Source of the DNA: Oscillospiraceae bacterium
Lineage (GTDB): Bacteria; Bacillota; Clostridia; Oscillospirales; CAG-272
Assembly (NCBI GenBank): GCA_015064415.1
Contig: SVSG01000019.1
Location: 1-45,395 of the forward strand
Reading direction: 5' to 3'
DNA length: 45,395 nt
Shown here: positions 4,695 to 42,810 of the stretch, piece after piece
How the letters are laid out: the number at the start of each line of letters is the position of its first letter
How positions within the stretch are numbered: position 1 is the first letter of the stretch
The notes under the pieces: generated by a model
Seen by the model: only the letters and a program-made list of their open reading frames with translations
Databases searched by the model: none
What the model was told of the DNA's origin: nothing
Program-made: the position numbers and the translations under genes

Positions 4695-4742
4695 CTGTTG
4701 TTGTACTATAATATAGGTAGTGCGCCTACCCGGCAACATACA

Positions 4743-4904
4743 GATAGCTCTCCATCAATACTGACGACAGTTCCACAGCTTTGAACCGTGCGAACCAGCA
4801 AGCCCCCGCCCGTCGGGCACTCACTTCGGCACTCTGCGCTCCCGCGGGGGCTGCAAGCGGTCACGGAACCTTGCCCCGACGAGGTCGTAGTGTGCACCTC
4901 TATC
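4743..4904 (-). promoter_or_regulatory. Lysine riboswitch (L-box) aptamer
   Basis: Read on the minus strand, the leader starts GATAGAGGTGC (from 4904) and ends GGAGAGCTATC (to 4743), so GATAG/CTATC close the P1 helix. Inside are the conserved GCCGAAGTGAG block and the ACTGTCGTCAGTATTG segment before the 3' end. Order, spacing and overall length (162 nt) match the lysine riboswitch family. It sits between a consensus promoter and dapA. Known L-box behaviour is that lysine binding favours termination, so excess lysine should lower dapA-dapB transcription. Confidence 0.9.
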
Positions 4905-4941
4905 ATTATATTATGTTTTTCCGACGAACTTCGTCCCCTTA

Positions 4942-41435: not shown

Positions 41436-41464
41436 TTGACAAAACGCGCGCGGCGTGTTACAAT
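41436..41464 (+). promoter_or_regulatory. Promoter of the cobalamin riboswitch operon
   Basis: TTGACA (41436-41441), 17 bp, TACAAT (41459-41464), directly upstream of the riboswitch. Confidence 0.82.
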
Positions 41465-41469
41465 AAGGT

Positions 41470-41635
41470 AACCGCGAAAGCGGTCTGTGCAAAATCAATG
41501 AACGCGGTTCCCCACGGGCTTGCATCGTGGGCGCGCCCCCGTGGCGCGGATGAGGAAAGTGCGGTGCAACTCCGTCACAACAGCCATTACCGTCAAAGTC
41601 GGAATGCTCATCGTCCCGTGCCGTAAAACGCCCCC
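41470..41635 (+). promoter_or_regulatory. Cobalamin (B12) riboswitch
   Basis: The leader holds the ordered blocks of a cobalamin-type aptamer: a 5' hairpin with GGTTCCCC, then GAGGAAAGTGCGGTGCAACTCC (written GGAAAG, GGTGCAA, CTCC within 41552-41572), ACAACAGCCATTACCGT (about 41577-41593), and GTCGGAATGCTCATC closing the core. GGTGCAA with the following CAGCC...CCGT is the B12-box region. A terminator follows at 41698-41730, then the lipoprotein gene. Edges are approximate. Known behaviour of this class is that bound cobalamin reduces expression of uptake or synthesis genes. Confidence 0.85.
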
Positions 41636-41697
41636 GGGCAAGGGGGAGGCGTGGCGCTTTTTACCGGAGTTCCGACGGTATTTTTTGGCGTTTCGCT

Positions 41698-41730
41698 CCC
41701 CTACGGCCCGTGGCCGTCGGGGGGCTTTTT
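41698..41730 (+). terminator. Riboswitch expression-platform terminator
   Basis: CCCCTACGGCC (41698-41708) pairs with GGCCGTCGGGG (41712-41722) with one mismatch, followed by GGC and five T. It lies between aptamer and the first gene's ribosome site, the expected position for cobalamin-controlled termination. Confidence 0.8.
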
Positions 41731-41776
41731 ACATTCATTCTTTTTGTAAAAAAACTTACGAAAAGAGGAAAAAAAC

Positions 41777-42199
41777 ATGAAAACAGCAACACGTATCACA
41801 CTTTTGCTTCTCGCGCTTCTTATGACCTTCTCGTTTGTCGCTTGTGCCGACGTGGACAAAACGGGCGCGTGGGAGACCGCGACCTACGACCGCAACACCG
41901 AGCTTGGCGAGGGTGCAAAGACTATCACCGTCAAGGTAGTCGCCGAGGAGCAGGAGCTGACCTTCACCATCCACACCGATAAGACCACCTTGGGCGAAGC
42001 GCTCAAGGAGCACGAGCTGATTGCAGGTGAGGAAAGCGAATTTGGTATGTACGTCAAGAAGGTCAACGGCATCGTCGCGGATTATGACGTGGACCAGACC
42101 TACTGGTCGCTGAGCAAAGGCGGCGTGGATATGATGGTCGGTGTGGACGGCGCCGAGATCGCTGACGGCGAGCAATATGAGCTTACCCGAAAGAAATAA
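41777..42199 (+). CDS. DUF4430 lipoprotein, likely corrinoid-related
   Basis: A 140-residue lipoprotein. Residues 1-24 are a signal peptide with the cleavage region FVAC (lipid Cys near residue 23). The mature part is a single DUF4430 domain: KTITVKVVAEEQELTFTIHTDKTTLGEALKEH, then FGMYVKKVNGI, TYWSLSKGG and IADGEQYEL. DUF4430 resembles the small domain of mammalian B12 carriers (intrinsic factor, transcobalamin). Sitting first behind a cobalamin riboswitch and overlapping an ECF S-component, it is a good candidate extracellular corrinoid-binding partner (inference). GAGGAAA precedes the ATG. Confidence 0.88.
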   Translation: MKTATRITLLLLALLMTFSFVACADVDKTGAWETATYDRNTELGEGAKTITVKVVAEEQELTFTIHTDKTTLGEALKEHELIAGEESEFGMYVKKVNGIVADYDVDQTYWSLSKGGVDMMVGVDGAEIADGEQYELTRKK

Positions 42200-42767
42200 C
42201 CGAGTCGAGGAGCAGACGACGGAACCGTCTGCTCCCCGCGCGAGAAAAAAGCCGTGGCTCACGGTGCGAGAGCTGTGCGTGTTCTCGATGCTTGGGGCCC
42301 TGCTTTTTTGCTCCAAGCTGTTGATGGAATGGGCGCCGAACATCCACTTTATCGCGCTTTTCATCATCACCTTCACGCTGGTGTACCGCGCGAAGGCGCT
42401 GGTGCCGATCTACGTGTTCGTGCTGCTCACGGGCGTGTACGGTGGTTTCAACGTGTGGTGGGTGCCGTACGTGTATATCTGGTTGCCGATCTGGGGGCTT
42501 GCGATGCTGCTCCCCCGCCGCGCACCCGCGTGGCTGCTGACGCTTTTGTGTATGCTTTTGGGCGGCTTACACGGCATACTTTACGGCGCGCTGTATGCCC
42601 CCGCGCAGGCATTTTTCTTCAAGTACGATCTGCAAATGACGATCACGTGGATCCTTTCGGGCCTCCCCTTCGATTTTTTACACGCCCTTGGCAATCTTGC
42701 CGCGTGTACGCTCACCTATCCGCTTTACAAGCTGCTTTGCCGTCTGGAACGCAAGAAAATGAAATAA
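42177..42767 (+). CDS. ECF transporter S-component (putative corrinoid/precursor)
   Basis: A 196-residue integral membrane protein with a charged N-terminal tail (about 1-30) and five or six transmembrane helices, the size and layout of ECF S-components. It has the beginning LTVRELCVFSMLGALLFCSKLLMEW, with the Ala/Gly-rich first helix that contacts the T-component, and a GGLHGILYGALYAPAQ helix. The ATG at 42177 overlaps the lipoprotein stop by 23 bases. No A/A'/T genes are in the window, so a shared energising module elsewhere is expected. Riboswitch control suggests cobalamin, cobinamide, alpha-ribazole or dimethylbenzimidazole as substrate. Confidence 0.85.
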   Translation: MSLPERNNRVEEQTTEPSAPRARKKPWLTVRELCVFSMLGALLFCSKLLMEWAPNIHFIALFIITFTLVYRAKALVPIYVFVLLTGVYGGFNVWWVPYVYIWLPIWGLAMLLPRRAPAWLLTLLCMLLGGLHGILYGALYAPAQAFFFKYDLQMTITWILSGLPFDFLHALGNLAACTLTYPLYKLLCRLERKKMK

Positions 42768-42810
42768 GTCCCCAAACGGTGCGAGTTTTCGCACCGTTTG
42801 GGGGCTTTTT
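42767..42810 (+). terminator. Terminator of the ECF operon
   Basis: AGTCCCCAAACGGTGCGA (42767-42784), loop GTTT, and its reverse complement form an 18-bp nearly perfect stem, followed by five T (42806-42810). Confidence 0.9.

What the first reader, a model, noticed from the sequence alone, without database searches (positions are those of the whole stretch)
41436..42767. Cobalamin riboswitch driving a DUF4430 lipoprotein fused in operon with an ECF S-component
Seen: a promoter, B12-type aptamer blocks, a terminator, a 140-aa lipoprotein with a single DUF4430 domain, and an overlapping S-component gene, ended by a strong terminator. Known: DUF4430 resembles the small domain of animal B12 carriers; ECF S-components usually bind substrate alone. 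Inferred: here a surface lipoprotein may capture the corrinoid and hand it to the S-component, a two-part receptor that Gram-positive ECF systems normally lack.
Basis: partly seen in the sequence, partly recalled or inferred. Interest (0 to 1): 0.78.

Follow-up and report, generated by a model that had tools for sequence, protein, structure and literature searches.

The report
Riboswitch-controlled B12 uptake lipoprotein pair
A gut-type bacterium carries a B12-sensing RNA switch in front of two overlapping genes that probably take up vitamin B12: a small surface lipoprotein built like the small domain of animal B12 carriers, and the membrane receptor of a vitamin importer; the gene pair is widespread and already predicted in public annotation, but I found no test of what the lipoprotein does.

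Summary
Promoter (41436-41464), AdoCbl-II cobalamin riboswitch (41541-41617), terminator hairpin (41695-41725), 140-aa DUF4430 lipoprotein (41777-42199), overlapping S-component gene (42177-42767) and final terminator are all present. By sequence the S-component's only PDB match is CbrT, the characterised B12 S-component of Lactobacillus delbrueckii (profile E 2e-10). At E <= 0.001 the lipoprotein's predicted fold matches a bacterial structure (3u7z) and otherwise only animal B12 carriers. The pair is not an oddity: of 146 distinct S-component sequences 129 have the lipoprotein directly upstream, and for 98 of these a cobalamin riboswitch was detected; six close S-components lack the lipoprotein, and no switch was detected there. 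A corrinoid-uptake operon is well supported. The two-part receptor (lipoprotein captures, S-component translocates) is the best explanation of the pairing but unproven. New member of a known, largely untested kind.

The parts
41436..41464 (+). sigma-70-type promoter, TTGACA-17-TACAAT with TG before the second hexamer
   Evidence: consensus scan, 11 of 12
41541..41617 (+). cobalamin riboswitch aptamer, Rfam AdoCbl-II (class-II type)
   Evidence: 39.5 bits, gathering 36.5, E 4.7e-6; conserved in relatives, four predicted pairs with changes on both sides
41695..41730 (+). intrinsic terminator of the leader (hairpin followed by TTTTT), probable expression platform
   Evidence: -26.3 kcal/mol, z -4.9; that it is the regulated terminator is inference
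41777..42199 (+). 140-aa lipoprotein with one DUF4430 / transcobalamin-beta-like domain; lipobox FVAC, 118 aa mature
   Evidence: PF14478 24.9 bits; PDB 3u7z 7e-14; model pLDDT 96, fold matches 3u7z and animal B12 carriers
42177..42767 (+). CbrT-type ECF S-component, 196 aa from ATG 42177, overlapping the lipoprotein gene by 23 nt (analysed from the in-frame TTG at 42183, or from 42234 in alignment A2)
   Evidence: only PDB sequence match 6fnp_A, 1.2e-5 single sequence and 2.3e-10 profile; model pLDDT 91, six best fold matches are S-components
42766..42807 (+). operon terminator, 19-pair stem with T-rich tail

Best explanation
This is a corrinoid-repressed B12 uptake operon. When cellular cobalamin is low, the class-II cobalamin riboswitch lets transcription pass the leader terminator; the S-component, a CbrT relative, is made together with a lipoprotein anchored on the outer face of the membrane. 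The lipoprotein's transcobalamin-beta-like domain binds a corrinoid and passes it to, or holds it over, the S-component, which carries it across the membrane with the genome's EcfA1-EcfA2-EcfT module. Shown: the aptamer, the promoter, the two overlapping genes, the CbrT kinship, the predicted fold of the lipoprotein, the conserved pairing, the ECF module in the genome. Inferred from established families: off-switch logic and Cbl/cobinamide as substrate (about 0.85 for corrinoid uptake). Inferred only: that the lipoprotein binds corrinoid (about 0.65) and delivers it to the S-component as a two-part receptor (about 0.5).
For: Riboswitch. CbrT is the only PDB sequence reached by the S-component at E <= 10; PMC5997447 (passages) reports ATP-dependent uptake of cobalamin and cobinamide by ECF-CbrT. 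The 19 Foldseek matches of the lipoprotein at E <= 0.001 are two chains of 3u7z and 17 chains from entries of haptocorrin, transcobalamin or intrinsic factor, among them an isolated transcobalamin beta domain with cyanocobalamin, 5np4. Direct pairing: 29 of 30 loci of the nearest relatives (own included), 36 of 49 class loci, 77 of 80 genome-contig loci; without duplicates 129 of 146, 98 of them with a detected cobalamin riboswitch. The six close S-components without the lipoprotein, each with 1.3 kb or more of upstream sequence, have none detected. DUF4430 proteins also neighbour S-components of this superfamily that come with their own ECF parts. EcfT with EcfA2 and EcfA1 in the own genome. 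Burroughs et al. 2007 (PMC1796856, passages) proposed B12 scavenging for bacterial transcobalamin-like proteins encoded near CbiO/CbiQ.
Against: Six loci have a close S-component and no lipoprotein upstream (L026, L034, L035, L102, L120, L130), and ECF-CbrT was expressed and transported without one in the passages read (PMC5997447), so the lipoprotein is not required in general. Twenty of 36 class-sample pairs have no detected cobalamin riboswitch. Foldseek E-values for the S-component are weak (0.6 and above) and 6fnp is not among the 50 rows shown. The PF14478 score is barely above its cut-off; below E 0.001 the lipoprotein's fold list also holds ubiquitin-like and ferredoxin proteins and toxin pore proteins, i.e. 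general beta-grasp likeness. No binding, complex or transport was computed or measured. The genome also has one Peripla_BP_2 protein with a FecCD permease, so a BtuFCD-type importer is not excluded.
Confidence: 0.68

Rival explanations
1. The S-component alone captures and moves cobalamin, and the lipoprotein is an accessory with another job: for example a store or scavenger of free corrinoid, or a partner for other surface proteins, not a direct donor to the S-component.
For: ECF-CbrT transports without a lipoprotein in the passages read (PMC5997447); S-components are described as binding ligand themselves (PMC7299338 passages); six close S-components lack the lipoprotein.
Against: Overlap or direct adjacency of the two genes in 129 of 146 distinct loci and neighbourhood in further operon designs argue for a shared step.
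Confidence: 0.3
2. The system imports a corrinoid precursor or lower-ligand compound (cobinamide, cobamides with other bases, alpha-ribazole) rather than cobalamin itself.
For: CbrT also carries cobinamide (PMC5997447); neither Pfam family of cobalamin adenosyltransferases and no class II RNR were found in the own genome, so the organism's use of B12 is unclear.
Against: The single clear homologue is a cobalamin/cobinamide transporter; a B12-binding radical SAM protein and a QueG-like protein are present as possible users. Corrinoid synthesis and remodelling genes were not searched.
Confidence: 0.12
3. The S-component moves another vitamin or a metal, and the cobalamin riboswitch is incidental.
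For: Twenty of 36 class-sample pairs lack a detected cobalamin riboswitch; the Foldseek top hits are thiamin, pantothenate and riboflavin S-components.
Against: By sequence only CbrT is reached among all PDB chains; two different cobalamin riboswitch classes precede the same pair in different relatives.
Confidence: 0.05

Closest known systems
CbrT of Lactobacillus delbrueckii (PDB 6fnp; nrdJ-cbrS-cbrT-pduO cluster, PMC5997447)
   Same: sequence relative over nearly the full length (profile E 2.3e-10); S-component working with a shared ECF module; the cluster has a gene, cbrS, directly before cbrT (that cbrS is the DUF4430 lipoprotein is my inference)
   Different: distant sequence; our branch reaches no Pfam or NCBIfam cut-off (one of 30 members has a weak NCBIfam match); no class II RNR or PduO found in our genome; class-II riboswitch in front
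'Additional lipoprotein component of putative cobalamin ECF transporter' (Lacticaseibacillus rhamnosus, PMC9963975)
   Same: a small lipoprotein assigned by annotation to a cobalamin ECF transporter; the text of the same paper names a DUF4430 protein gene near rtpR, which I take to be the same protein
   Different: seen only as a table row and one sentence; no functional test in the passages read
RUMGNA_00854 of Ruminococcus gnavus (PDB 3u7z, 'putative metal binding protein')
   Same: same small protein family (7e-14 single sequence, 4.3e-25 profile; TM 0.91 normalised by the target)
   Different: no ligand named in the records seen; its gene neighbourhood was not examined here
Animal B12 carriers: transcobalamin, haptocorrin, intrinsic factor (beta domain)
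   Same: fold of the small domain, TM 0.55-0.67 normalised by our model; shared G-Y-I ... YW ... GG ... G-E pattern with haptocorrin
BtuG surface lipoproteins of Bacteroides (title seen in the reference lists of PMC6593275 and PMC6977713; otherwise recalled)
   Same: idea of a surface lipoprotein that captures B12 for a membrane transporter
   Different: as recalled, an unrelated protein with an outer-membrane partner (BtuB); here an ECF S-component

Membership tests
Cobalamin riboswitch, AdoCbl-II (RF01689) | score at or above Rfam's gathering threshold | tested here: met
   39.5 against 36.5 bits; the 12 relatives' copies that Rfam lists score 26.6-33.0, below it
Cobalamin riboswitch, AdoCbl-II (RF01689) | conserved paired core with compensatory changes | tested here: met
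   11 aligned aptamers; 4 of 19 predicted pairs keep pairing with both sides changed; this RNAalifold structure is not identical to Rfam's
Cobalamin riboswitch, AdoCbl-II (RF01689) | ligand binding and which cobalamin form | not testable with these tools
   no assay; literature passages only
CbrT-type ECF S-component | sequence kinship to CbrT rather than to other S-components | tested here: met
   only 6fnp_A among 177635 distinct PDB sequences at E <= 10
CbrT-type ECF S-component | S-component fold | tested here: met
   Foldseek ranks 1-6 are all S-components, TM up to 0.64, but E 0.6 or worse and 6fnp not among the 50 rows shown
CbrT-type ECF S-component | an ECF module to work with | tested here: met
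   EcfT (CbiQ, the single match in the genome), EcfA2 and EcfA1 (cut at the locus end) side by side on contig C19
CbrT-type ECF S-component | binding of cobalamin/cobinamide | not testable with these tools
   needs purified protein
ECF_trnsprt and other Pfam S-component families | match above a Pfam cut-off | tested here: not met
   no Pfam family at E <= 0.01 for any of 30 members of A2; distant, longer members do match
DUF4430 / transcobalamin-like SLBB clade | PF14478 gathering score | tested here: met
   24.9 against 23.8 bits
[quoted passage not shown]
   model strands 60-65 and 68-74 follow helix 50-56; fold matches; clade definition from PMC1796856
DUF4430 / transcobalamin-like SLBB clade | B12 binding | not testable with these tools
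   no assay; no test of a bacterial single-domain protein in what was read
Lactobacillus nrdJ-cbrS-cbrT-pduO cluster | adenosylcobalamin RNR and adenosyltransferase alongside | tested here: not met
   neither gene in the operon and no TIGR02504, PF01923 or PF02572 match in the 81%-complete genome

The most novel reading that the evidence does not exclude
A whole branch of Clostridia uses a two-part B12 receptor: a membrane-anchored single transcobalamin-beta domain that grips the corrinoid outside and docks on a CbrT-type S-component, a Gram-positive counterpart of BtuG-BtuB, with the same domain that animals later used in transcobalamin. In the window's organism the switch that controls it may sense non-adenosylated cobalamin, since no adenosyltransferase or class II RNR was found.
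Probability: 0.42. Interest if true: 0.68.

Novelty: new member of a known kind. Interest (0 to 1): 0.42.

Why it matters
B12 is a contested nutrient in gut communities, and Bacteroides capture it with surface lipoproteins (title in reference lists). If the DUF4430 lipoprotein really feeds an S-component, ECF transporters, described as capturing ligand with the membrane S-component itself (PMC7299338 passages), would have an extracellular receptor after all, in a large group of rumen and gut Clostridia. It would also give a function to a bacterial protein with the fold of the animal carriers' small domain, which bears on the proposal that animals acquired it from Gram-positive bacteria (PMC1796856 passages). 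It makes an unproven annotation label directly testable.

Tried and rejected
Rfam at E <= 0.1 finds a cobalamin riboswitch for 15 of the 30 nearest loci, the window's included; with my own covariance model it is 27 of 30, so a missing Rfam hit was not taken as absence. A loose text pattern of the aptamer core was used only to look at pairs without a hit and was not counted. Foldseek could not place the S-component beyond 'S-component'; the second aligner was not available. The PF14478 search missed some lipoproteins of the family (G376 and G142 are not in the list but have them), so absence there is weak evidence. 'Invariant C1' in alignment A1 is partly by construction, since rows were started at a cysteine, and in row L019 my script chose a wrong, later cysteine. 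The L012 lipoprotein frame is split in two in that assembly; it was left out of A1, described only, and counted as a pair. A search of plasmids with the lipoprotein gave one distant match, in an unannotated record, not followed.

How counts were made. 'Pair' means a frame (stop to stop, at least 45 aa) matching a lipoprotein profile on the same strand, within -300 to +400 nt upstream of the S-component frame; the profiles were built from A1 and A2 and iterated once on L002-L081 themselves. Nearest relatives: the 30 best of 40 matches in 59 genomes, own included; the ten weaker matches were not examined in that set (one, G053, came in again as L048). Class sample: 52 genomes with a match of 393; 49 loci other than the own one were examined, G387 and G185 were not fetched. 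Genome contigs: the best 80 of 552 or more. R1 was run on 155 of the 159 S-component loci (L062-L065 left out; scanned with Rfam); its weakest counted hits are 19.4 bits (L151) and 38.8 bits (L105). Of the 80 genome-contig loci 30 were scanned with Rfam; of the 11 pairs there without a hit, 7 were never given to Rfam. Thirteen duplicates were removed for the 146. No switch was detected for any of the 17 distinct loci without a direct pair, but that number overstates the contrast: L047 is cut by a contig end, and for operon-type loci (L062-L065, L076-L078, L080, L081) the start of the operon lies mostly outside the fetched stretch; only the six short S-components are a fair comparison.

Full report
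What is there. The window is contig C14 of an unnamed, 81%-complete genome of 2.25 Mb; the titled records with the nearest S-components are nearly all uncultured Clostridia, many from ruminant guts. From 41436 to 42807 one transcription unit can be read: promoter, class-II cobalamin aptamer, terminator hairpin with a T run, DUF4430 lipoprotein, overlapping S-component gene, strong terminator. The S-component gene most likely starts at ATG 42177, where several relatives also have an ATG.

The aptamer. RF01689 is matched over its full length above the gathering score. In relatives the same element scores just below the Rfam threshold; they carry a variable insert between two conserved blocks that the window's copy lacks. 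A model of 11 aptamers from this neighbourhood, the window's included, finds 25 of 75 and 48 of 80 loci, each once and on the coding strand of the S-component gene, upstream of it. Other relatives have the class-I cobalamin riboswitch RF00174 at the same place. Two different cobalamin riboswitch classes in front of the same gene pair are good evidence that the pair handles corrinoid.

The S-component. The window's protein reaches no Pfam or NCBIfam cut-off; none of 30 members of the branch matches a Pfam family at E 0.01 and one has a weak NCBIfam match, so automatic annotation by these models would miss it. The only PDB sequence reached is 6fnp chain A, CbrT, at 1.2e-5 from one sequence and 2.3e-10 from the profile; shared stretches are PN, GFxxWxxP and SGLxFDxxHAxGNLA. 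The AlphaFold model is confident (pLDDT 91) and the six best fold matches are S-components, though with weak E-values. The genome has one EcfT with EcfA2 and EcfA1 next to it, apart from this locus, which fits a module shared by several S-components.

The lipoprotein. One DUF4430 domain after a lipobox. Sequence reaches 3u7z (7e-14) and, weakly, haptocorrin (0.02; profile 7e-4; further profile hits at 0.003 and above are unrelated receptors and others). The model (pLDDT 96) matches 3u7z at 1.1 A over 94 columns; the other 17 matches at E <= 0.001 come from haptocorrin, transcobalamin or intrinsic factor entries, among them an isolated transcobalamin beta domain with cyanocobalamin; below that follow general beta-grasp proteins. 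The hairpin after the helix that marks the transcobalamin-like clade is present. A single beta-type domain is therefore a plausible corrinoid binder, but nothing here tests binding.

How regular the pair is. Directly upstream lipoprotein: 29 of 30 nearest loci (own included), 36 of 49 loci of a class-wide sample, 77 of 80 loci from genome contigs. Without duplicate S-component sequences: 129 of 146, of which 98 have a detected cobalamin riboswitch, 62 found with the model of the window's type and 36 by RF00174 only. By set, switches were found for 27 of 29, 16 of 36 and 66 of 77 pairs; the class sample is the weak point, with 20 pairs that have no detected switch. Of the 17 loci without a direct pair, one is cut by a contig end (L047), one has a longer DUF4430 protein upstream (L074), four are EcfA-EcfA-S fusions with a DUF4430 protein a short way upstream (L062-L065; CbiQ and DUF4430 shown by Pfam in L063, CbiQ in L065), five are longer S-components (L076-L078, L080, L081), of which L076 lies between a tandem ATPase and a DUF4430 protein, and six are short S-components without the lipoprotein (L026, L034, L035, L102, L120, L130). 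So S-component and DUF4430 protein are neighbours in at least three operon designs. The lipoprotein is missing now and then, and in those six cases no riboswitch was detected either.

What the cell does with B12. In the own genome I found one B12-binding domain, in a DUF4080 radical SAM protein, and a QueG-like protein, but no class II ribonucleotide reductase and neither Pfam family of cobalamin adenosyltransferases. No RF00174 riboswitch was found in the genome; RF01689 was not searched genome-wide. Class-II riboswitches include types that prefer methyl- or hydroxocobalamin and types that prefer adenosylcobalamin (PMC11477304 passages; env8 with hydroxocobalamin, PMC10907184 passages). A switch that senses non-adenosylated cobalamin would fit, but the genome is 81% complete and this stays a guess. 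A Peripla_BP_2 protein with a FecCD permease is present; it may be for B12 or for iron.

What is known. Rodionov et al. 2009 predicted CbrT (as cited in PMC5997447; the paper itself is not held). PMC5997447 (passages) shows cobalamin and cobinamide uptake by ECF-CbrT and names the cluster nrdJ-cbrS-cbrT-pduO. PMC9963975 (passages) has a table row 'Additional lipoprotein component of putative cobalamin ECF transporter' and, in its text, a DUF4430 protein gene near rtpR. PMC1796856 (passages) proposed in 2007 that bacterial transcobalamin-like proteins scavenge B12 and lie near CbiO/CbiQ genes. My searches for DUF4430 (6 papers), DUF4430 with cobalamin (2), lipoprotein component with cobalamin ECF transporter (1), CbrS with cobalamin (2) and five wider ones listed no paper that, by title, start of abstract or the passages I opened, tests the lipoprotein's function; most subscription journals and bioRxiv are not held, so this is no proof of absence.

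Verdict. The corrinoid-uptake operon is well supported and is one of many like it. The two-part receptor is the most economical reading of the gene pairing and the fold, at about even odds. Novelty lies in the detail (an unmodelled CbrT branch, a class-II switch, the size of the association), not in the kind.

Noticed in passing
window 4737-4910 (-): Lysine riboswitch (59 bits, gathering 30) directly upstream of genes that read as dapA and dapB (4629-3724 and 3702-2953, minus strand; names from reading the translations).
   Followed up: partly
L062-L065 (e.g. L065:253-3646 +): CbrT-like S-components at the C-terminus of tandem EcfA ATPases (open frames of 858-1021 aa), behind a CbiQ-type gene (shown for L063 and L065) and a DUF4430 protein: a dedicated ECF transporter with S fused to its ATPases.
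   Followed up: partly
L026, L034, L035, L102, L120, L130: Close S-components without the lipoprotein and without a detected cobalamin riboswitch; in L102, L120 and L130 the gene upstream reads as a peptidylprolyl isomerase (by eye).
   Followed up: partly
L037, L040, L042-L045, L049-L054, L056-L058, L061, L069, L071, L075, L079: The 20 lipoprotein/S-component pairs of the class sample with no Rfam or R1 cobalamin riboswitch (L045 has a core-like text match); possibly a further aptamer variant or another regulator.
   Followed up: no
L082:1465-2898 +: B12-binding radical SAM protein with DUF4080, the only PF02310 match found in the genome and a candidate user of the imported corrinoid.
   Followed up: partly
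L019, L024: Gut-1 RNA (RF01706) close to the 3' end of the operon in two relatives.
   Followed up: no
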